64,000 nucleotides of DNA from Aporhodopirellula sallentina SM41. Lineage in GTDB: Bacteria > Planctomycetota > Planctomycetia > Pirellulales > Pirellulaceae. Position numbers and translations under genes: made by a program. The first letter of the stretch is position 1, and every line of letters begins with the position of its first letter. The stretch covers positions 1-64,000 of the forward strand of contig NZ_ANOH01000364.1 of the NCBI RefSeq assembly GCF_000346505.1, written 5' to 3'. Shown here in pieces: positions 24,601 through 37,871 of the stretch. The notes below the pieces were generated by a model. The model worked only from the letters and a program-made list of their open reading frames with translations, ran no database searches and was not told the origin of the DNA.

Positions 24601-25734
24601 CTACGCCTGACGAAGTGCATCGACAATCGGAACGGTCGCCGCCTGCACCGCAGGCGCCACCCCCGCGACAACGCCGACCAGAGCCGAAATACTAATTCCG
24701 GACACGGCTAAACCGATCGAGGGACGAAAGGCGATCGTGGCCCCCTCGGCACCAATTGCAAAGCCGCCACCCCACAGTAAAGCCAGAGCGAAGAGAGTTC
24801 CGCTGAAACCGCCGACGATACACAACAGCGTACTTTCCGCGAGCACCAAACGCATCGTCCGCACCGGACGCACACCAATCGTTTGCAGCACCGCGTACTC
24901 TTTCATGCGGTCTTGCACACTCATTACCGTGGTGGTCGCAACGAGTGACAGAACGAGCCCCACGCATGCATAGCCGAGCCAATGTGCGAACCCGATAAGG
25001 TCCACCAAATCGGACAGAGTGCTAGCCTGAAAAGCACCTTTGCGGCGAGTCTTGGTCGCCACCGCACCGGTTCGCAGTTTCGCGTCGATTTCGGAAGCCA
25101 CTCGATCTGGATCGGCTCCTTCGGCCAACGTGACTTCGTGCTGGGTCACCAATCCTGCCGCATCGAGACCGCGGGTGTACTGCAGAAACGCGAGACTCGT
25201 ATAAATCAAATTCTCTTCCGACGGAACGCTCGACTCAAAGACCCCCGCGACTTTGACAGAGATCTCTCCGATCGAAAACTGATCACCAGCGTCGAGCCCT
25301 CTTCGCTGAGCAACGTTCCTGCCCACGATCGCCGCATCACGCTGGCTCTCGAACCCATCCCAACTCCCTTCGACTAACTCGATCGGACGTGACGAACGAA
25401 TCTGTTCAGGATCGGCACCGTTGAAAACGACGATGTCTAAACTCGCACGACAGTTGTTCGTCCAAACCTGAATCGGCATCACATCACGGACACCAGAGAC
25501 TTCCTTAATTTTGCCCGCATAGTCTTCAGGCAGCCGACTGCTCGTCGGACAAAATCGGTTCTCTTGAAATACGATCAAACTGCGGTCCGCGTCCTCTCCC
25601 GTTGTCAAACGATTGAGGCCCTCCTGAACCGACCCGACAAAGCAGAACACGAACATCGCCACCGCGGCACCTGACACAGTCAACAGCGTTCGCGTTCGAT
25701 GTCGCCAAAGCGTTTTCAGGACGTAGGTAATCAT
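24601..25734 (-). CDS. ABC transporter permease (FtsX/MacB type)
   Basis: 377 residues. One membrane helix near the N-terminus ([20 protein letters not shown]), a large extracytoplasmic MacB-like domain (about residues 40-250), and three helices at the C-terminus (about 250-370) give the type VII ABC layout. The start overlaps the stop of the ATPase gene by ATGA. It is the last gene of an efflux or lipid/lipoprotein-type ABC operon with the second permease at 28671-29825. Confidence 0.9.
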
Positions 25735-26465
25735 TGCGTTGCCACCGAACCGCTCGCAGGCGTTTGATCCTCGGGCACCAAGACCGTTTTTTCTCTCTCA
25801 ACAAATTTGCCGTTTTGCAGCAGCAATCGGCGAGAGGCAATCTCGGCCGCCTCCGCATCGTGCGTTACCATCAACATGGTGATGTTCAACTCCTTGTTGA
25901 GCCGCTGCAGCAGCACCTGTATTTGCTCACTGGTCTCGGTATCAAGGCTCCCGGTTGGTTCATCGGCGACGACCACCTTAGGGTGCGAGACGATCGCCCG
26001 TGCGATCCCCACACGTTGTTCCTGTCCCCCTGACAATTGCCGTGGGTAATGCTCTGCACGATCACTTAACCCCACCGCTTCGAGTGCCAACTCCACACGT
26101 TGTCGCCGCTCGGTCGATGACAGCTTTAAAAGAAGTGTCGGCAACTCAACGTTCTCGTATGCGGTCAGAACGGGGATCAAGTTGTGAGTTTGGAAGATAT
26201 AACCCAAGTTCGCAGCTCTCCAGTCCGCCAATTTGCTTCGCGACAGTTCGGTAATCTCCGTCCCGTCAACGAAGATCGTCCCCGAATCAACTCGATCGAT
26301 CCCACTGACCAGGTTGAGCAGCGTACTCTTTCCAGTTCCACTCGGTCCCATCAGGGAAACGAACTCTCCCTGCTCGATCGACAAATCAACGTCATCCAAC
26401 GGTGTGATCGTCTCGTCTCCTTTTTGGAAACTCTTCGACACGCCTCGCAATTCTACCAACGCCAT
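25731..26465 (-). CDS. ABC transporter ATPase (LolD/MacB-like)
   Basis: 244 residues. Walker A is GPSGTGKST at 40-48, the Q-loop [19 protein letters not shown] at 91-109, the ABC signature [15 protein letters not shown] at 143-157, Walker [10 protein letters not shown] at 164-172, and the switch histidine lies in [11 protein letters not shown]. The sequence is of the LolD/MacB/DevA group, which powers mechanotransmission-type permeases. It starts directly after the adaptor stop codon and overlaps the permease start. Confidence 0.95.
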
Positions 26466-28021
26466 TTATTTCATCCCTATTCTTTGATCGTCACCACGAA
26501 TCAATACCGGTTTACCATCCGTCAGCGGTTCGGAGCGATCCACGACGATCTTTTCGGTCACGCGCAACCCCGATTCAACCTCAATGAGTCCTTCGTTGCT
26601 TTCCCCGCCCAAAATCACTTGTCGTTTTTGAGAGCGACCTTCCGAATCGACGATCCAAACATACGATCCCGCGTCGTCCGATTCGATCACTTGCTTGGGC
26701 GCGAACAGACGTTCGGATTGTTGAGTCTCTTTGCCGGAGGTCTGAACCTCAGGCGACATAAACGTGGCGGTTACCAACATTTCCGGGCTAACCGTGGACG
26801 GTGGACGCATCAACTCGACCTTCACTTCCAAAGTGTTCTTTTGCACGTTCGCGGAACTCGTCGACTGCAGAACTCGGCCCTGCAGCTTTGCTTTCGATGA
26901 TGCGGTTTCAATTTCGACCGGTTGCCCCGGAATCACCATCGGAACATCCTCCAAACGAACGTCCACCCGCACCTGCAAACGTTCCGGATCGTACATTTCG
27001 ACAACCGTGCTCGAACCTTGCCCCGGTGCGGTGCCTCCGCCTGCGACATGCGTGCCAGGCGACGCCACCAAACGCAGTACCCGACCATTCATCGGCGCAC
27101 GTACGATGTTTCGATCCAACGCGAGCTCGGCGAGCCGTACCTGCAAACGAGCTTCTTCGCAGAGAGCCTTCGCCGATTGAACCTTGGCCTCCGCCTCTTC
27201 GAGTTGCCGTGTTTCTTCGACCAGCAGTTTGAGTTGCCGCTGCAACGCGGCCTCCTTGTCCTTCAATGCGTCCACCTCGCGCTGCAAGTTGGGGCGGCGT
27301 TGTTGCAGTTCGCGCAGCGTCGCTTCGGCAGCCGCGTAGTCGCTTTCCGCTCGGGCAATCACTCTTCCGGGGACCGCTCCCTTGGCAGACTGTTTTCCCT
27401 CCATGCTGCTCCGCGCGAACGCCAAGTTTGCTTCGCTCGCCTCAATCAGATACGGCAACTTCGCAAGTTCCGTTTGCGCCTTCGCTAACATGCTCCGAGC
27501 ATCCGACAACTGCACTTCCAAATGCACCGGGTTGTCGCGACGCACTCGTGCGGCATCGAGTTCGGCTCGAGCCCGCTTCAGTTCGCCTTCACGAATCGCC
27601 AACAGGTTCTCCGCTTGCTCGACTTTCAATTCGGCATCGATTGAAATCAGCATCGCGATCGGTTCGCCCTTGCGGACTTGCTGACCTTCGACAACGAGTA
27701 ACTCCTCGATCACGCCCTGAGTCAATGCGGCGACGCGTATCGCCGTGGGCCTCGGCTCGACCCAGCCGGGTGCCTGAAACAACGCCGTTCCCGCCTTTTG
27801 TATCACTGCCCGCTTGGACACAACGGGAACCACGGTTACCGACGGCATTGGCATCATTCGACGCCCCGCCGCCGATAAAAATGCCCCAAGAACCCTACCA
27901 GGATCGCAACCGGCAGCCCGTAACGCGTCAACCAACGTCGACGGCGCACCGGTCTCGCGTTCGGTTCACCTTTCGGTGACCGATCAATCGCGAGACGACT
28001 CAAATCAAAAGGCTCAGACAT
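26466..28021 (-). CDS. HlyD/RND-type periplasmic adaptor with an apparent -1 frameshift
   Basis: The intact-looking product would be about 518 residues. A frame from the ATG at 28021 gives [17 protein letters not shown], a basic stretch and a membrane helix ([13 protein letters not shown]), then stops at 27854. The main frame, from inside that segment to 26466, carries [12 protein letters not shown], a biotinyl-lipoyl-like half ([23 protein letters not shown]), a long coiled coil (about 200 residues) and the beta-barrel ([15 protein letters not shown]). The two join perfectly if one G is added at 27884-27887, a run of four G on the coding strand. This is either a real mutation, a sequencing error or recoding. 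The adaptor would bridge the inner-membrane ABC complex to the outer envelope. Confidence 0.85.
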
Positions 28022-28067
28022 AAGCAACCAAAGCGGGCGTCGTGAGGGAACAGCAAGACCGCGTCGA

Positions 28068-28574
28068 TCAGTCCTTCTTCACGAACACTTGATCGGCCAC
28101 AACCGTCAGATTGCCTTGCTCGTCTTTCTGAGCAGTGCCGCTGACAACGACCTTAGACAGTTCTTTGACCGACAACAGCTCGCGAGCATCTTCGGCGAGT
28201 GGTCCTCCCGATTCGTCAACGATCTTGACCGTCGCGATGTTGTCTTTGACCTGATCTTGAGTGCAGCAATAGTCCCAAGGTGTTGGACAACCTTCTTCGT
28301 CGGCGCAATAAGGCACGCTCTCATCCACGATCGTGAACGCAGCCAACCCGTCAACGAACGGTTCGGTAGAACCGCCGATCAATCCGACCAAGGTAATCGG
28401 TTGGCCGTCTTCGCCCGACGCGTTCGCATCGCCCACTGAGACCGCACCGGACGGTTCGGCATCGACGAGGTACTGGGAGGTTGGTTCATCCGTTCTGTCG
28501 GCCGATGGAGATGCACCACAGCCAACAACAAAGACCAACATGCCCGCAATCAAAACACCGTATACACTCTTCAT
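28068..28574 (-). CDS. Secreted lipoprotein of the efflux operon
   Basis: 168 residues with a lipobox ending at C19 (MLVFVVGCG). The mature part has an acidic, low-complexity linker (about 22-60), then a compact domain with PYCADEEGCPTPWDYCCTQ at about 88-106 and VVVSGTAQKDEQGNLTVVADQVFVKK near the end. The latter looks like an OB-fold beta barrel. Four cysteines in the middle could hold a metal or form disulfides. It lies 46 bases upstream of the adaptor and 96 bases after the first permease, so it is probably part of the transporter. The function is unknown. Confidence 0.75.
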   Translation of the reverse strand: MKSVYGVLIAGMLVFVVGCGASPSADRTDEPTSQYLVDAEPSGAVSVGDANASGEDGQPITLVGLIGGSTEPFVDGLAAFTIVDESVPYCADEEGCPTPWDYCCTQDQVKDNIATVKIVDESGGPLAEDARELLSVKELSKVVVSGTAQKDEQGNLTVVADQVFVKKD

Positions 28575-28670
28575 ATCAAACTCCTATTGAACCCTATCGT
28601 TGGGAAAAAAGAGCCCTCGTCCGACACGTGATACGAACACGATCCAAACATGAGAAACTCCACGAAACAA

Positions 28671-29825
28671 TCAAACTGATTTCAAACTCGTCGCAACCTC
28701 AGATCGCAACGCTTTCAGAGCAGGAGGCAACGCACCCACCACTCCCAATAAAACTCCGACACCGCAGCCGATTAATATCGCCACGCTATCAATCCGCAGA
28801 GCGAACGCGCCCATCGTGAACCGCACCGCCATTCCGTTCAGGGCGGTCAATGCCAAGACACCTGATAACAGCGATCCGGACGCGGCGAGCAACACGCCTT
28901 CTTGAACTAAACTCAACACAATCGCGCGTCGCCGAAACCCGACCGCTTGCAGTGTCGCAATTTCGCGTACACGGCCCGCAACGGCACCGTACATCATGTT
29001 CAGACCGGCAAAGATTCCTGCGGCGGATACCATCACAACAACCGACCACGCCAACAAACGCACCGGACGGTAATGCTGCTGCAAGGAAGCGTAGTAGTCG
29101 GTTTCTCGTATCGCGCGTATCTCGAGATCGGTGCGTTCTTTGCAAAACAAAGAAACCTCGCCGGCGGACCCTTCGGGTGAAAGCAGCATTGCCACCAAGC
29201 TGAGATCTTGACGCTTGGTGGCCGCCTGAAAGTCTTCCAACCGGCACCAAATCTCTGACTCGTACGCCGAACCTCCCGACGCAAATCGGCCGCTCACTGT
29301 CCACTGCTTTCCCTCGAATTCGAGGGTCTTACCGAGTGCGATCGCATCTTCAGAACTGCCGAGCTTTGCGGCCGCTAACCGCCCCACGATGACTTCACCT
29401 GCCCGCGGCCAACTCCCCTCGACCAGACGAACGGATCGACGAACCAAAGGTGTTGCCAACGTGACGCCACGAACCAAACCGAGACCGGCCTCATCCAACT
29501 CGTTCTTCACGCGTGTCCCCATGTAAAGCTCAGGGGAAACATGCGTCATACCGAAACGTGAAACCGTTCCGCCAACGCTCGCGGTCAACAACGCAGGAAT
29601 CTGTGCCGCGATTGCTGAGTTTTCAATGTTCTCCTCGGAATTGACCGAATAGACGAGAACAACATCGTCGTCCCCACTGGTCGATAGCGATCGTTCGAGC
29701 CCTCGAATGAATCCGACAACGACGAACACCAACATGACCACCGTCGCGAGTGCGATCAACGTTAGCAAGGTACGCAGCGGCCGACGGGCCAAATTGCGAA
29801 CACCGTATTCCCAGGGAAGCAACAT
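28671..29825 (-). CDS. ABC transporter permease (FtsX/MacB type), first of two
   Basis: 384 residues, starting [21 protein letters not shown]. It has an N-terminal helix ([18 protein letters not shown]), a periplasmic domain (about 50-270) and three C-terminal helices, as in DevC/MacB-like permeases. It differs clearly from the permease at 24601-25734, so the two probably form a heterodimer around the single ATPase. It is the first gene of the transporter operon. Confidence 0.9.
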
Positions 29826-30983: not shown

Positions 30984-32090
30984 ATGATTGCGTCCGCCTT
31001 CTCAGATCTCTCCCGCAACGCCCCGGTAACCATGCCGACCATGCCGACGACCTCAAGGCATAGTCATCAAAATGGGATCCTTCGATGCGTTGGTAACACA
31101 CCGTTGGTCTCTTTGACACGCTACCTCGACGAACCTTCCGTGGAACTTCACGCAAAACTCGAGGCAGCCAATCCGGGTGGCAGTGCGAAAGACCGCCCGG
31201 CGTTGCAGATGCTTACTCATGCATTCGAAACCGGCGAGCTTTCACCGGGTGATACCGTCGTTGAGTCATCCTCGGGAAACATGGGCATTGGTTTGGCTCA
31301 GGCATGTCGGTATCACAACCTGCGATTCATTTGCGTCGTTGACCCCCACGCTCAACCGCAAAACGTCGCAATCATGAAAGCGTATGAGGCGGACGTGGTT
31401 CGTGTTACCGAACCGCACGACGGTAGTTTTCTCGCCGCACGGCTGCACCGCGTACAAAAGATCCTGGCCAAAACCCCAAACAGCTTTTGGCCCAACCAAT
31501 ACGCCAATCGCCAAAACCCAATCGCACACGAACTGGGGACGATCCGAGAAATTCTCGAATCAACACAAGGTGACTTCGACTATCTGTTCGTCGCAACTAG
31601 TAGCACCGGAACCGCACAAGGTTGCCGCGACTATCTGAGAAGGCTCAACCACCACGCCAAAGTCATCGCGGTGGACGCAAACGGCAGCGTTCTCTTTGGC
31701 GGCTCCCCCGGAAAGCGACTGATCCCTGGAATCGGCGCCGGCCATCTTCCTGCGTTGGCGAAAGACCAGACGTTCGACGACGTGGCCCGCGTCTCGGATA
31801 TCGACTGCGTCGTCGGCTGCCGTCGTGCGTCGCAACGAGAAGCAATTCTCGTTGGTGGTTCCGCAGGCGGTGTTTTGGAAGTAGTTCGAGCACACCAGAA
31901 CCGAATTCGCGGTAAACGAATTGTTGCCATCCTGCACGACTCGGGTACTCGGTACCTAGACACGGTATTCAGCGATCAGTGGGTTCAGTCGGAACTCGGC
32001 GTCACACCAAACATGATCGAAGAAAGGATCCACGCTCCCGCACTGACAGCTCCGGCACCGAATCATCCGCAAAGCGAGACCTCGTCGTAA
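30984..32090 (+). CDS. sbnA: SbnA-like N-(2-amino-2-carboxyethyl)-L-glutamate synthase
   Basis: 368 residues from the ATG at 30984, nine bases after GGAGG; a second ATG at 31032 is possible. The PLP lysine is K69 in NPGGSAKDRP, the substrate loop ESSSGNMGIGLA follows, and STGTAQGC binds the phosphate of PLP. RYLDTVFSDQW near the C-terminus and FWPNQYANRQNP also match Staphylococcus SbnA as I remember it. SbnA joins O-phospho-L-serine with L-glutamate on the way to 2,3-diaminopropionate. The fold is shared with cysteine synthase, so that activity is the alternative. It is coupled to the next gene by a TAATG overlap. Confidence 0.82.
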   Translation: MIASAFSDLSRNAPVTMPTMPTTSRHSHQNGILRCVGNTPLVSLTRYLDEPSVELHAKLEAANPGGSAKDRPALQMLTHAFETGELSPGDTVVESSSGNMGIGLAQACRYHNLRFICVVDPHAQPQNVAIMKAYEADVVRVTEPHDGSFLAARLHRVQKILAKTPNSFWPNQYANRQNPIAHELGTIREILESTQGDFDYLFVATSSTGTAQGCRDYLRRLNHHAKVIAVDANGSVLFGGSPGKRLIPGIGAGHLPALAKDQTFDDVARVSDIDCVVGCRRASQREAILVGGSAGGVLEVVRAHQNRIRGKRIVAILHDSGTRYLDTVFSDQWVQSELGVTPNMIEERIHAPALTAPAPNHPQSETSS

Positions 32091-33910
32091 TGAATCCTCA
32101 AACCATTCCCGCTCCACTCGGCGAGTCCGCATCCTCCCCGTCGATATCCAGCCATGCTACTGATGCGGCACGATCGAACAGCGACTCCTCGGCCGACACG
32201 CGTGAACCGGATGAACCTATTCTGCTCGGGCGAGAGTACCGCATCGGTGTTGTCGGCTGCGGGCCTCGCGGGCTGTACTGCCTTCAATCGCTAGCGGACG
32301 AACTAGCGCAGATGCAACCGCTGCCGACGTTGGCGATTTTCATATTCGAACCTGCCGACTTTCCCGGTGCGGGTAACGTCTATGATCCCCGTCAACCGCG
32401 ATATCTCAGGATGAACTTCGCCGCCAAAAACATCGACGCGTGGCCACCGCGAAGCCAGCCCGATGACCAACGCCTTAATTTGGTCGAGTGGCTACGTCGC
32501 GAAGCAGGCGAGGAAACTCACCCGAACTCTTTCGTGAGCCGCGCCTCGGTCGGCCAATACCTTCACCGTTGTTACCATCAAGTGATCGGGCAACTCGCCT
32601 CGTTCGCCACTGTCACGGTGATTCAAGAGGAAGTCTCGTCGATCGATCGCTTGACCGACGCCTGGCAAATCAGGACCGATCGCATGCTGTCGAGCGTCGA
32701 CGAACTCCTGATCACGACGGGACATGGCCAGTGGGACAAACCACCGGAACCCAGCGTCCCCATTCAATCAACCTGGATCCCCACCTTCCCGGTCGGAGAG
32801 AACTTGTCGATTGATGTCGTGCCTCCGCAAAGCACCGTCGCTATTCGCGGTTTTGGCTTGACCTGCATCGACGCCACGCTCGCAATGACGGAAGGACGTG
32901 GAGGAGAGTTCGAACGTTCCGGCCAAGACTGGCGTTATCAATCAACGGGACAAGAACCTCAATGCCTGTACCCATTTTCTCGTTCGGGTCGACCGATGCT
33001 GGCCAAGCCAGACGAGTCCCTTTTCCATCACCCTGACGAACTTTGCGAGGTCTGGTCGGAAGGGCGTAAGTCGATTAGCAAAATCTCCCAGCCGATCACG
33101 TCTCAAGTGCTCTCGCACACGTTGTGGCCGCTGATCACCGATACCGCAGCAATGGCTTTACAAACCTGCACTCGCATTCCAACGACGACCGCAAGCGATA
33201 TCCGATCGTGGTTCGACATTTGGTGCAGCGAAGAGATGAACGGGGACGTCGCTTTTCACACGATGCATGAATCCTACCGAGTCGCGACGGGCCAATCCGA
33301 TCCCAATATCGCCTGGGCACTCGGAACCGCCTGGAGAAACCTCTACCCCGCATTGGTTGATTGCATCAGCTACGGCCGATTGGTAGCCGAGGTATGGCCG
33401 AAGTTCCGTCGTATCGCCGTCGAAATGGAACGAATCGCGTTCGGGCCGCCGGCAGAGAACGTCGGAAAAATGCTGGCACTGATCAACGCGTCTCTCGTGG
33501 ATCTGCGTTTCGCATGTGGTCGGATCGAAAAATCCAGTGAAGGTGATTCACGACTATCGCTTCGTGATCGCTCTCGCTCAAACGCCTCCTGCCATTCACT
33601 GACGATCGACCGCTGCGTGAATGCCGTTCTCAAATCGCCACGACAATGCCTCTCCGCGCCCCCCTTCGATTCGCTGGAAGAAAAGGCAATCATTGAACGC
33701 CTCCAAGGTCCATCAACGTTGCGTGTGGACGCCGACGGCAAACCACTGCGACATAATTGCGATTCGCCTGACCGGTTGTCCATTCTCGGTCGTGCCACCG
33801 AGGGCTGCATCCTTGGCAACGATACCCTCAGCCGTACACTGCATGATCACCCTCAACGTTGGGCATCGAGCGTCGCAGCCAATCTTCGGAAAGTAAACCT
33901 ATTGACATGA
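32090..33910 (+). CDS. FAD/NAD(P)-binding flavoprotein of the SbnA-like operon
   Basis: 606 residues from the ATG at 32090, overlapping the SbnA stop; the frame opens upstream but the overlap fixes the start. A hydrophilic leader (about 48 residues) precedes the dinucleotide-binding motif GVVGCGPRGLYC at about 53-64, then FEPADFPGAGNVYDPRQPRYLRMNF, the pattern of the FAD-NAD(P)-binding family PF13454. A second Rossmann-like motif STVAIRGFGLTCIDATLAM is near residues 245-263. The middle part and C-terminus are not recognised. An amine or amino-acid oxidation is plausible, perhaps in place of the missing SbnB dehydrogenase. That is inference. Confidence 0.8.
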   Translation: MNPQTIPAPLGESASSPSISSHATDAARSNSDSSADTREPDEPILLGREYRIGVVGCGPRGLYCLQSLADELAQMQPLPTLAIFIFEPADFPGAGNVYDPRQPRYLRMNFAAKNIDAWPPRSQPDDQRLNLVEWLRREAGEETHPNSFVSRASVGQYLHRCYHQVIGQLASFATVTVIQEEVSSIDRLTDAWQIRTDRMLSSVDELLITTGHGQWDKPPEPSVPIQSTWIPTFPVGENLSIDVVPPQSTVAIRGFGLTCIDATLAMTEGRGGEFERSGQDWRYQSTGQEPQCLYPFSRSGRPMLAKPDESLFHHPDELCEVWSEGRKSISKISQPITSQVLSHTLWPLITDTAAMALQTCTRIPTTTASDIRSWFDIWCSEEMNGDVAFHTMHESYRVATGQSDPNIAWALGTAWRNLYPALVDCISYGRLVAEVWPKFRRIAVEMERIAFGPPAENVGKMLALINASLVDLRFACGRIEKSSEGDSRLSLRDRSRSNASCHSLTIDRCVNAVLKSPRQCLSAPPFDSLEEKAIIERLQGPSTLRVDADGKPLRHNCDSPDRLSILGRATEGCILGNDTLSRTLHDHPQRWASSVAANLRKVNLLT

Positions 33911-35427
33911 GCATCGCCGCAAATCCTCACCAGGCAATCCAGTCGGACGAATGGAATCGTTTGCAAAGCCACTGCCGTGGCGTGACTCCTCTTAACGCGC
34001 GGTGGGCGGATTGGATGGTCGATGCTCTCACCCTCCATTCCGCTTCCTTGCATCGCTTGATCGAAGAACATGGCTCGCCGATTAACGTGGTAACGCCCGT
34101 TCCGTTGCAGCGTAATCTGAAACAACTGTGCGATGTCGCGTGTGAGCGTGAAGTCGATTTCCGACCCTTTTTTGCTCGCAAAGCAAACAAGTGCCTGACA
34201 TTCGTGGACGCGGCCAAACAGATCGACGCGGGCGTCGACGTCGCGAGCGAACCGGAATGCCAACAAACGCTCGATCGCGGCATTCCTGGCCCGAACATAA
34301 TCTGTACCGCTGCGATCAAAACGTGGTCGCTGATCGAGTTGTGCGTTCGCAATCAGGTCACGATCGCGGTCGACAACGACGACGAACTCGACGTGGTTGA
34401 CGCGGTCACGTCCGACTTATCGCTCCCAGCAAACATCGCGATCCGGCTCAGTGGGTTCTCGCACAACGAAACCAAACTTCACTCGCGGTTCGGTTTTGAC
34501 ATCGATTCGGTCCACGAAGTTGAAGACAAAATATCGTTGCTCGCTGCCGACGAAAAAGTGAAACTCCATGGACTCCACTTTCACCTCGACGGCTACTGTG
34601 CGGACCAGCGAAAGTCCGCGATCAAACAGTGCCTGCCATGGATCGATCGCCTTCGTTCCCAAGGACACGACATTCGCTTTCTAGACATCGGTGGCGGTCT
34701 CCCCATGAGCTACCTCAACGATAATGAGCAATGGGACAGATTCTGGAAGTCTCTCCGAGAGTCACTGCGTGGCCATCAACCTCCAATCACCTACCGCAAC
34801 CACGGTCTCGGACTGCGTCATGACCACAATGGCATCACCGACACAGCGAACACGTATCCGTACTTCCAACAGCCCGTACGTGCCGAATGGTTCGCCGAAG
34901 TGTTGGACGCGGATTCGGGCGAAAACTGTTCGATCGCATCCGCCATCAAGAAAAGCTCTTTGCAATTGCGGTGCGAACCCGGGCGAAGCAGCCTAGACGC
35001 TTGCGGGATGACGGTAGCGAGAGTTGAATTCACCAAACATCACCCCAACGGCGATTGGTTCATTGGCCTCGGCATGAATCGCACCCAATGTCGAACCGGC
35101 AGCGATGACTTTCTGGTCGACCCGGTTGTATTGACGAGCCCGAAGGACTTCGACAACGCGACTGAAACCACAGCAACGCGTTCTCCTCGCAGCGGCTACC
35201 TCGTAGGCGCCTATTGCACCGAGTCCGAGTTGATTCAATTGCGAAAGCTGCAATTCCCTCAAGGCATCCAAAGGGGAGATCTTGTCGTCTTCCCCAATAC
35301 CGCCGGTTACTTCATGCATTTTCTCGAAAGCCGGTCGCATCAGTTCCCGCTGGCAAAGAATGTTGTCTTCGACGAGGACTCGGCGGAAGTGTTTCGCCTC
35401 GACGCGATCGATGCAAAATCGCTATAA
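33907..35427 (+). CDS. Y4yA-like PLP-dependent decarboxylase-fold enzyme
   Basis: 506 residues from the ATG at 33907, overlapping the previous stop by ATGA. It belongs to the alanine racemase/diaminopimelate decarboxylase fold type III. The PLP lysine is K92 in FFARKANK. GLHFHLDGY, LDIGGGLPMSYL and LRCEPGRSS follow in the usual order of the barrel, and the C-terminal beta domain ends with GDLVVFPNTAGYFMHF. The long length and TYPYFQQP insert point to the Y4yA subgroup known from rhizobia. Decarboxylation or racemisation of an unusual amino acid made by the two preceding enzymes is inferred. SbnH, which acts in staphyloferrin B synthesis, has the same fold. Confidence 0.85.
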   Translation: MSIAANPHQAIQSDEWNRLQSHCRGVTPLNARWADWMVDALTLHSASLHRLIEEHGSPINVVTPVPLQRNLKQLCDVACEREVDFRPFFARKANKCLTFVDAAKQIDAGVDVASEPECQQTLDRGIPGPNIICTAAIKTWSLIELCVRNQVTIAVDNDDELDVVDAVTSDLSLPANIAIRLSGFSHNETKLHSRFGFDIDSVHEVEDKISLLAADEKVKLHGLHFHLDGYCADQRKSAIKQCLPWIDRLRSQGHDIRFLDIGGGLPMSYLNDNEQWDRFWKSLRESLRGHQPPITYRNHGLGLRHDHNGITDTANTYPYFQQPVRAEWFAEVLDADSGENCSIASAIKKSSLQLRCEPGRSSLDACGMTVARVEFTKHHPNGDWFIGLGMNRTQCRTGSDDFLVDPVVLTSPKDFDNATETTATRSPRSGYLVGAYCTESELIQLRKLQFPQGIQRGDLVVFPNTAGYFMHFLESRSHQFPLAKNVVFDEDSAEVFRLDAIDAKSL

Positions 35428-37331: not shown

Positions 37332-37871
37332 TCACTCGTTCTCCTGAACGAGATCAAAATGCACTTCACGCATGGGCAGCCAAAAATCGTTCTTATGATT
37401 CGGGTCATTCGAACGTACGACATTGAGACTAATCTGCAACTTCTTCAAGGCCGTATCAAACTGACTCTTCGTGCACCCGGTACGTTGCACGGTCTGCTTT
37501 CGCAACTGACCCGTATACATCGGTTCGACGCGAACAATCTCATAGACCTCTTGCACCAGCGGGTCTAGCTGTGACACGTCTTGAAAAGCAGACGGAAAGT
37601 GTTCCGTTCGGAAATACTCCATCTCCATCAACACCGCATCCCCGCCGGCAATCTTCCCGTAGAAAACTTCGTCGGGGTACGTTTGGGGAATCCGCGTCTT
37701 CCAATCCCAAACTGCCGTCACCTTGGGACTCCAACCGCCGGCCTTGGGCTTGTCCTCTGACAACGCGGTGTGGTCCCAAAGAGACGCGTATTGCGATCCC
37801 TTGCTACCAAAAACCGTAACGACCTTCTCGCTGAGCACCAACTGATAGGCTTCTTCGAACGTCTTTATCAT
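37332..37871 (-). CDS. Conserved hypothetical protein, possible winged-helix type
   Basis: 179 residues, no signal peptide or membrane segment. The N-terminal half is rich in aromatic residues (SLWDHTALSEDKPKAGGW, VWDWKTRIPQTYPDEVFYGK). The C-terminal part (YTGQLRKQTVQRTGCTKSQFDTALKKLQISLNVV) looks like a winged helix-turn-helix. I remember similar proteins labelled AlkZ-related, a group connected with crosslink-repair glycosylases, but this is too short for a full enzyme. It ends 31 bases beyond the convergent isomerase gene. Confidence 0.65.
   Translation of the reverse strand: MIKTFEEAYQLVLSEKVVTVFGSKGSQYASLWDHTALSEDKPKAGGWSPKVTAVWDWKTRIPQTYPDEVFYGKIAGGDAVLMEMEYFRTEHFPSAFQDVSQLDPLVQEVYEIVRVEPMYTGQLRKQTVQRTGCTKSQFDTALKKLQISLNVVRSNDPNHKNDFWLPMREVHFDLVQENE

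What the first reader, a model, noticed from the sequence alone, without database searches (positions are those of the whole stretch)
30984..35427. Three-gene operon of SbnA-like, FAD/NAD(P)-binding and Y4yA-like enzymes: a candidate undescribed small-molecule pathway
The genes overlap by TAATG and ATGA, so they are made together. Known facts: SbnA makes the glutamate-serine adduct that leads to 2,3-diaminopropionate, and SbnH, a decarboxylase of the same fold as Y4yA, acts in staphyloferrin B synthesis. Here there is no SbnB and no NIS synthetase or NRPS in the window; a flavoprotein stands in their place. I infer an oxidised, possibly decarboxylated diamino acid, or a metal chelator made in a new way.
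Basis: partly seen in the sequence, partly recalled or inferred. Interest (0 to 1): 0.72.

Follow-up and report, generated by a model that had tools for sequence, protein, structure and literature searches.

The report
Conserved three-enzyme N-oxygenase–decarboxylase operon
A compact three-gene operon, kept together across at least six bacterial phyla and sometimes partly fused into one protein, most likely makes a small nitrogen-oxidised, decarboxylated diamino compound by a route not found described in the papers searched.

Summary
Three overlapping genes encode an SbnA-family enzyme (over NCBI's equivalog cut-off), a NAD_binding_9 flavoprotein and a Y4yA-like PLP decarboxylase. In 149 genomes of the window's family each gene was found in the same 22; all three are adjacent in 21 of these 22. 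A genome-contig scan gave 61 loci in six phyla; 57 have all three genes in the same order. In 12 of the 61 the flavoprotein and decarboxylase are one fused protein. The flavoprotein's model matches the aspartate N-hydroxylase FzmM over its whole length (Z 31.6, next entry 20.6). Its flavin-side core is conserved; three of the five aspartate-binding residues are not. None of the 149 genomes matches the NIS synthetase family, nor SbnB above cut-off. Best reading: SbnA condenses O-phosphoserine with glutamate, the flavoenzyme oxidises the new nitrogen in SbnB's place, and the decarboxylase finishes. Substrates and product are inferred. The metal-chelator idea has no direct support: no widely recurring transporter, no Fur-like box in the window. 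Searches of open-licence papers found cousin clusters (y4yA to y4xM in rhizobia), not this triad.

The parts
30984..32090 (+). Gene 1: SbnA-family fold-II PLP enzyme (368 aa); predicted O-phosphoserine + amino-acid condensing enzyme
   Evidence: TIGR03945 368.4 bits over cut-off 349.95; best solved relative SbnA 5d84, E 1.1e-68; PLP lysine and O-phosphoserine residues K47/R132/Y152/S185 kept as K69/R153/Y173/S206
32090..33910 (+). Gene 2: FzmM-fold FAD/NAD(P)H monooxygenase (606 aa); predicted N-oxygenase with a changed substrate pocket
   Evidence: PF13454; profile match to 8cp2, E 2.1e-56; model mean pLDDT 89.5; Z 31.6 to 8cp2/8cp5, next entry 20.6
33907..35427 (+). Gene 3: Y4yA-like fold-III PLP decarboxylase (506 aa)
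   Evidence: PF02784 E 4.1e-27; 44.9% identity to a Sulfitobacter protein annotated 'Y4yA family PLP-dependent enzyme'; K92, EPGR 357-360 and C437 invariant, E439 nearly so, in 17 aligned sequences
32088..32092 (+). TAATG stop/start overlap of genes 1 and 2
   Evidence: read; genes 1 and 2 overlap in 51 of 57 genome contigs triads under a mechanical choice of start
33907..33910 (+). ATGA start/stop overlap of genes 2 and 3
   Evidence: read; genes 2 and 3 overlap in 38 and are fused in 10 of the same 57

Best explanation
The operon encodes a self-contained three-enzyme pathway. (1) The SbnA-like enzyme replaces the phosphate of O-phospho-L-serine with an amino compound, most likely L-glutamate, giving N-(2-amino-2-carboxyethyl)-glutamate (ACEGA). 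(2) In place of the NAD-dependent SbnB, a flavin/NAD(P)H/O2 N-monooxygenase of the FzmM fold oxidises this nitrogen; the product either stays an N-hydroxy adduct or collapses to 2-oxoglutarate and an N-oxidised diaminopropionate. (3) The Y4yA-like enzyme uses the still free alpha-amine to remove the carboxylate, giving an N-oxygenated ethylenediamine-type small molecule. Shown by computation: the operon, its conservation and fusion, the families, the FzmM fold of the model, the kept cofactor-side residues (by alignment), and no match to SbnB (above cut-off) or NIS families. Inferred: every substrate and product, the order of steps 2 and 3, and the biological role.
For: SbnA equivalog score and kept O-phosphoserine residues: K69, R153 and Y173 in 22 of 22 aligned triad SbnA proteins, S206 in 20 of 22 (residues from PMC12414870, passages seen). 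FzmM (8cp2/8cp5) is the best match of the flavoprotein by sequence and by fold, over the whole chain including the helical substrate domain. Catalytic Asn62 is kept in 55 of 55 aligned flavoproteins. Y4yA active-site residues are kept. The same 22 of 149 genomes hold all three genes. 57 of 61 genome-contig loci have the same order. Flavoprotein-decarboxylase fusions in 12 of 61 loci point to consecutive steps. Gene-tree distances agree (r 0.796 to 0.909; 0 of 999 permutations as high). No SbnB over cut-off and no PF04183 match in 149 genomes.
Against: No substrate has been tested. Of the five Asp-binding residues of FzmM, three have no counterpart here (R276, N413, R416), so the substrate of step 2 cannot be read from the relative. 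In 4 of the 22 triad genomes (G028, G090, G106, G107) SbnB-profile matches below the cut-off exist and might release diaminopropionate in trans. Two actinobacterial triad SbnA proteins that were scanned fall just below the SbnA cut-off. In G055 (contig of the same length as that of L049) the decarboxylase gene is not adjacent. The cousin enzyme Y4xP is reported as a cysteine synthase (passage in PMC3973906), so the nucleophile could be sulfide.
Confidence: 0.45

Rival explanations
1. Plain SbnB replacement: the flavoprotein only dehydrogenates the adduct, releasing 2-oxoglutarate and L-2,3-diaminopropionate with no oxygen kept on nitrogen; the decarboxylase then makes ethylenediamine or a related diamine.
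For: Cousin clusters fill the slot next to SbnA-like and Y4yA genes with other oxidoreductases: an octopine/nopaline dehydrogenase family protein in pNGR234a (L004) and an annotated ornithine cyclodeaminase in M. avium pMAH135 (L006). No SbnB over cut-off in 149 genomes.
Against: The best structural relative is an N-hydroxylating monooxygenase over its whole length, with the catalytic Asn kept in 55 of 55. A dehydrogenase would not need that machinery (inference).
Confidence: 0.2
2. Sulfur route: the SbnA-like enzyme uses sulfide or sulfite (cysteine or cysteate synthase), the flavoprotein oxidises sulfur and the decarboxylase gives hypotaurine or taurine.
For: SbnA, CysK and cysteate synthase profiles all match P0001. 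Y4xP in a cousin cluster is reported as a cysteine synthase (PMC3973906 passage). Taurine chemistry is recalled, not tested here.
Against: P0001 scores 368.4 bits with SbnA, 213.2 with cysKM and 166.4 with cysteate synthase. The genome has a separate CysK. Y4xP has S and G at the Y152 and S185 positions and scores 236.5 with SbnA, below cut-off. The flavoprotein's relative is an N-oxygenase.
Confidence: 0.1
3. Asp N-hydroxylase route: the flavoprotein makes nitrosuccinate or nitrite from aspartate as in cremeomycin or fosfazinomycin pathways, and the SbnA and decarboxylase products are later nitrosated, as proposed for alanosine.
For: FzmM is the closest solved structure. Alanosine clusters combine a diaminopropionate unit with CreE/CreD homologues (PMC7347517 and PMC11705231, passages seen).
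Against: In the Arg/Asn cluster of FzmM, R412, N413 and R416 are replaced by Y (55 of 55), P (47 of 55) and V (45 of 55) (alignment). No fourth gene recurs in more than 9 of 65 stretches. Lyases and cupins elsewhere in the genome were not searched.
Confidence: 0.08
4. The triad supplies a building block to a siderophore or other NRPS product encoded elsewhere in the genome.
For: The genome has NRPS condensation domains over cut-off on contigs C20 (two), C215 and C274. SbnA serves staphyloferrin B in S. aureus (PMC3179956, listing and start of abstract seen).
Against: The triad stands without a widely recurring neighbour. No PF04183 match in 149 family genomes. No Fur-like box in the window (10 of 19 matches, shuffles 10.2 on average).
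Confidence: 0.12

Closest known systems
Staphyloferrin B precursor pathway (S. aureus SbnA, SbnB, SbnH)
   Same: SbnA-family first enzyme over cut-off with the O-phosphoserine residues kept; fold-III PLP decarboxylase (the role of SbnH is recalled)
   Different: No SbnB over cut-off, no NIS synthetase match; a monooxygenase-fold flavoprotein sits between the two PLP enzymes; flavoprotein and decarboxylase sometimes fused
Rhizobial y4yB-y4yA-y4xP-y4xO-y4xN-y4xM cluster (pNGR234a)
   Same: Y4yA-like decarboxylase beside an SbnA/cysteine-synthase-like gene
   Different: There the gene after y4xP is an octopine/nopaline dehydrogenase family protein, followed by IucA/IucC and MFS genes; gene order differs; y4xP is 33% identical to gene 1 and lacks two O-phosphoserine residues
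M. avium pMAH135 cysteine-synthase/ornithine-cyclodeaminase/Y4yA/MATE cluster
   Same: SbnA-like and Y4yA-like genes together, no NIS gene annotated in the stretch read
   Different: Annotated ornithine cyclodeaminase in place of the flavoprotein; a MATE exporter follows; the SbnA-like protein scores 236.1, below the SbnA cut-off
L-aspartate N-hydroxylase FzmM (8cp2/8cp5; CreE, AlnM relatives)
   Same: Whole-length fold; cofactor-side residues including the catalytic Asn
   Different: About 20% identity; Asp-binding R276, N413, R416 not kept; partner genes are SbnA and a decarboxylase, whereas CreE and FzmM are paired with a lyase (PMC7347517 passage)

Membership tests
SbnA (TIGR03945) | Score over the curated equivalog cut-off | tested here: met
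   368.4 against 349.95 bits; over the cut-off in all 22 triad genomes of the family sample. Two actinobacterial triad members fall just below: L080 340.1, L062 344
SbnA (TIGR03945) | K47, R132, Y152, S185 (numbering of S. aureus SbnA) | tested here: met
   K69, R153, Y173, S206 in P0001; kept in 22, 22, 22 and 20 of the 22 triad proteins aligned, of 86 triad loci then in hand (residues from PMC12414870 passages)
SbnA (TIGR03945) | Makes ACEGA from O-phosphoserine and glutamate | not testable with these tools
   needs an enzyme assay
FzmM/CreE L-aspartate N-hydroxylases | Three-domain fold with large helical substrate domain | tested here: met
   Z 31.6, rmsd 3.1, 518 residues aligned to 8cp2
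FzmM/CreE L-aspartate N-hydroxylases | Asp-binding residues R13, R276, N413, R416, R577 | tested here: not met
   By alignment only R13 (R in 38, K in 17 of 55) and R577 (R in 53 of 55; position extrapolated beyond the alignment's end) are kept; N413 becomes P in 47, R416 becomes V in 45; R276 has no counterpart
FzmM/CreE L-aspartate N-hydroxylases | Partner nitrosuccinate lyase (CreD/FzmL) | not tested
   lyases elsewhere in the genome were not searched; none of the window neighbours scanned is one
Y4yA family PLP decarboxylases | Fold-III decarboxylase domain with PLP lysine, EPGR and Cys-x-acid motifs | tested here: met
   PF02784; invariant or nearly invariant in alignment A4, which includes pNGR234a Y4yA (29% identity to P0002). 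The naming of the motifs is recalled
Staphyloferrin B / NIS siderophore pathway | SbnB dehydrogenase | tested here: not met
   none over cut-off in the own genome or in 149 family genomes
Staphyloferrin B / NIS siderophore pathway | NIS synthetase (PF04183) | tested here: not met
   0 of 1 own genome, 0 of 149 family genomes; controls rang in E. coli and H. volcanii
y4yB-y4xM cluster | Octopine-dehydrogenase-family, IucA/IucC and MFS genes beside the pair | tested here: not met
   none among the nine window neighbours scanned; no fourth gene in more than 9 of 65 stretches
Known anti-phage defence proteins | Match in PADLOC-DB | tested here: not met
   0 matches for the three proteins

The most novel reading that the evidence does not exclude
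The triad is a previously undescribed biosynthetic pathway, spread across at least six phyla, that couples SbnA condensation to an FzmM-fold N-oxygenase acting on a secondary or distal amine and then to decarboxylation. Its small product would be an N-hydroxy-diamine or N-hydroxy-imino-acid ligand, signal or toxin, with the unstable N-oxidised intermediate handed directly from oxygenase to decarboxylase, as the fused proteins suggest.
Probability: 0.3. Interest if true: 0.78.

Novelty: new variant of a known kind. Interest (0 to 1): 0.62.

Why it matters
If right, it is a very small and widely distributed natural-product pathway: three genes, no assembly line beside it, no widely recurring transporter. 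It would show a new use for the aspartate N-hydroxylase fold and another solution to the SbnB step. Because the genes are so tightly linked, and partly fused in Corynebacterium, Rothia and Propioniciclava, the product could be sought with one expression experiment.

Tried and rejected
Literature: Y4yA, y4xP, SbnA/SbnB with N-hydroxylase, alanosine, EDDS, SbnA with Planctomycetes or Corynebacterium, SbnA with N-oxygenase. Nothing seen described the triad; for most listed papers I saw only the listing and the start of the abstract, and most subscription papers are not in the library. The EDDS zincophore was considered as an analogue; the passages seen did not give its biosynthetic genes. Viral contigs with P0003 alone (reaches close relatives only): no relative.

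Promoter and terminator scan: no more sites than in shuffles. Fur-like box in the 300 bases before gene 1: best match 10 of 19; 239 of 300 shuffles did as well. Of 57 homologous upstream regions scanned, L033 (14 of 19) and L075 (12 of 19) had matches that none of 60 shuffles reached; with 57 tests and small controls I do not count this, but it is not against a metal role.

Neighbour survey over 65 stretches (61 genome-contig loci, L001-L003, a window slice): mechanical ORF calling with shadow ORFs merged flavoprotein and Y4yA genes in one cluster, so the counts are rough. The widest other clusters held 9 loci (ABC ATPase type) and 8 loci (SDR type). Twenty neighbours were scanned with Pfam: SDR twice, AI-2E transporter twice, MFS, aldehyde dehydrogenase, IclR, radical SAM and others; three had no match. 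The identity of the three 22-genome sets as a chance probability assumes independent genomes, which they are not; I do not use it.

Parts of what I had: A1 used 18 flavoproteins; A2 55 of 86 triad flavoproteins then in hand (fused ones and the plasmid ones left out); A3 22 triad SbnA proteins plus two cousins; A4 15 triad decarboxylases plus two cousins. In the tree L049, L059, L064, L079, L085, L088 and L090 were left out; 57 loci were used (54 genome-contig loci and L001-L003), and the flavoprotein half of fused proteins was cut near the decarboxylase. L085, L088 and L090 start inside the flavoprotein at a contig end, so gene 1 could not be tested there. L086 and L088 are contigs of one assembly by title. 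L059 has gene 1 in two pieces and gene 3 cut by the contig end. L093 lies among fused Corynebacterium proteins but is read as two ORFs; a frameshift was not checked. The rows of G086 and G111 report one TGA inside the flavoprotein match, although frames of 555 and 550 aa are open there. Some family genomes and genome-contig loci may be the same or near-same organisms (the contig of G055 and that of L049 have the same length), so the two surveys are not independent.
Full report
What is there. Terminator-like sites in the region are no more than in shuffles. The start of gene 1 is uncertain because the frame is open upstream and homology begins near residue 30.

What the proteins are. Gene 1 passes NCBI's equivalog cut-off for SbnA (368.4 against 349.95 bits), and its nearest solved relatives are the SbnA entries. 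The residues that PMC12414870 (passages seen) gives for PLP and O-phosphoserine binding are kept in P0001, and in 22, 22, 22 and 20 of 22 aligned triad proteins. The rhizobial Y4xP has S and G at the Y152 and S185 positions and scores 236.5, below the cut-off. The genome also carries a CysK over its own cut-off (L097), so gene 1 is probably not needed for cysteine.

The flavoprotein is the key. By sequence its only clear solved relative is the L-aspartate N-hydroxylase FzmM, 8cp2/8cp5 (E 3.2e-15 alone; 1.6e-41 and 2.1e-56 by profile). An AlphaFold2 model from 55 sequences has mean pLDDT 89.5. It matches FzmM at Z 31.6 over 518 residues, against 20.6 over 319 for the next entry; Foldseek also ranks it first. 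The FzmM paper (PMC10404684; outline with abstract, sections 7 and 8 read) names Asn62 above the flavin and an Arg/Asn cluster, and gives R13, R276, R416, R577 and N413 as contacts of aspartate. By alignment N62 is kept in 55 of 55; R13 is R in 38 and K in 17; R266 is K in 55; R409 is R in 50; R577 is R in 53 (position extrapolated). R412 is Y in 55, N413 is P in 47 and R416 is V in 45 of 55. So the oxygenating core stays and the aspartate pocket does not: an N-oxygenase fold with another substrate. This rests on alignment, not on a structure with ligands.

Gene 3 is a fold-III decarboxylase of the Y4yA group. The PLP lysine, EPGR and Cys-x-Glu positions are invariant or nearly invariant in 17 sequences that include pNGR234a Y4yA.

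Conservation. In an even sample of 149 genomes of the window's family, the flavoprotein (E at most 1e-10), the decarboxylase (1e-30) and SbnA (1e-80, all over cut-off) each hit the same 22 genomes. The three genes are adjacent and in the same order in 21 of the 22. In G055 the flavoprotein and SbnA are together and two decarboxylase copies lie elsewhere. In an even sample of 392 genomes of the phylum, 7 have the flavoprotein; adjacency was seen for G000, G090, G299 and G452 and not checked in the other three. One scan of genome contigs with an alignment of 18 flavoproteins gave 61 loci from Planctomycetota, Pseudomonadota (alpha and gamma), Verrucomicrobiota, Acidobacteriota, Gemmatimonadota and Actinomycetota by record title (some phylum names recalled from the genus). 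Of these, 57 have all three genes in order, 3 are cut by a contig end before gene 1, and 1 (L049, probably the G055 assembly) lacks the neighbouring decarboxylase. The scan patterns come from triad members and so favour them; the family sample does not have that bias. Sulfitobacter plasmids and a Tsukamurella plasmid carry it too.

Fusion. In 12 of the 61 loci (eight complete and two cut from Corynebacterium, one Rothia aerolata, one Propioniciclava sinopodophylli) the flavoprotein and decarboxylase form one reading frame, 868-941 aa when complete. Together with overlap or close spacing elsewhere and agreeing gene distances (r 0.895, 0.909 and 0.796) this argues that the two enzymes work in immediate succession.

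What is missing. No SbnB over cut-off and no PF04183 match in the own genome or in any of 149 family genomes. Weaker SbnB-profile matches (E at most 1e-20) exist in 56 of 149 genomes, among them 4 of the 22 with the triad. Besides the triad no gene cluster recurs in more than 9 of 65 stretches. NRPS condensation domains exist on other contigs of the own genome. There is no match in the defence library.

Mechanism. The simplest scheme that uses all three enzymes is: O-phosphoserine + glutamate to ACEGA (SbnA); flavin N-oxygenation of the new nitrogen, with or without loss of 2-oxoglutarate, in SbnB's place; decarboxylation at the serine-derived alpha-amino acid, which still has its free amine for PLP. 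Cousin clusters support the 'slot' idea: the third partner beside SbnA-like and Y4yA-like genes is an octopine-dehydrogenase relative in pNGR234a and an annotated ornithine cyclodeaminase in M. avium pMAH135. Substrates and product are inference. The rivals are plain dehydrogenation, a sulfur route to taurine, an aspartate/nitrite route, and precursor supply to a distant NRPS.

Comparison with print. [quoted passage not shown] Two further papers list the genes (PMC4881576, PMC10970691, passages). Nothing in my searches describes an SbnA, flavoprotein and Y4yA triad; the library holds open-licence papers only and most hits were seen as listings. I call it a new variant of the SbnA-based kind of pathway, with a fair chance of being a new pathway outright.

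Noticed in passing
window 24601-29825 (- strand): MacB/FtsX-type permeases, ABC ATPase and HlyD-type adaptor upstream on the other strand; of 65 stretches compared, this neighbourhood recurs as a whole in L033 and L041 only, so it looks like local synteny rather than part of the triad.
   Followed up: partly
L117, L118, L119, L120, L121 (genomes G055 twice, G077, G028, G115): Second Y4yA-like genes with no SbnA or flavoprotein found beside them, in differing contexts.
   Followed up: partly
L005 7974-12123: A Pseudosulfitobacter plasmid (one read of 46 records with a match) carries a 28% identical NAD_binding_9 flavoprotein beside a 2OG-Fe(II) oxygenase, a methylated-DNA-cysteine methyltransferase and Ada, as if a local product were alkylating.
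   Followed up: no
L006 5226-10717: M. avium plasmid pMAH135: cysteine-synthase-like, ornithine cyclodeaminase, Y4yA and MATE genes near copper-related genes, with no NIS gene annotated in the stretch: a second relative without NIS.
   Followed up: no
window 37332-37871 (- strand): AlkZ-related protein (PF24741) downstream, near an AP_endonuc_2-type TIM-barrel protein and a DUF421 protein.
   Followed up: no
L093 7233-10033: Corynebacterium locus inside the fused clade where flavoprotein and decarboxylase read as separate frames; sequencing error or real split not checked.
   Followed up: no
control genome Corynebacterium glutamicum: The SbnA profile matches the C. glutamicum control genome at E at most 1e-80 but below the cut-off; whether this laboratory species carries the triad was not checked.
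   Followed up: no
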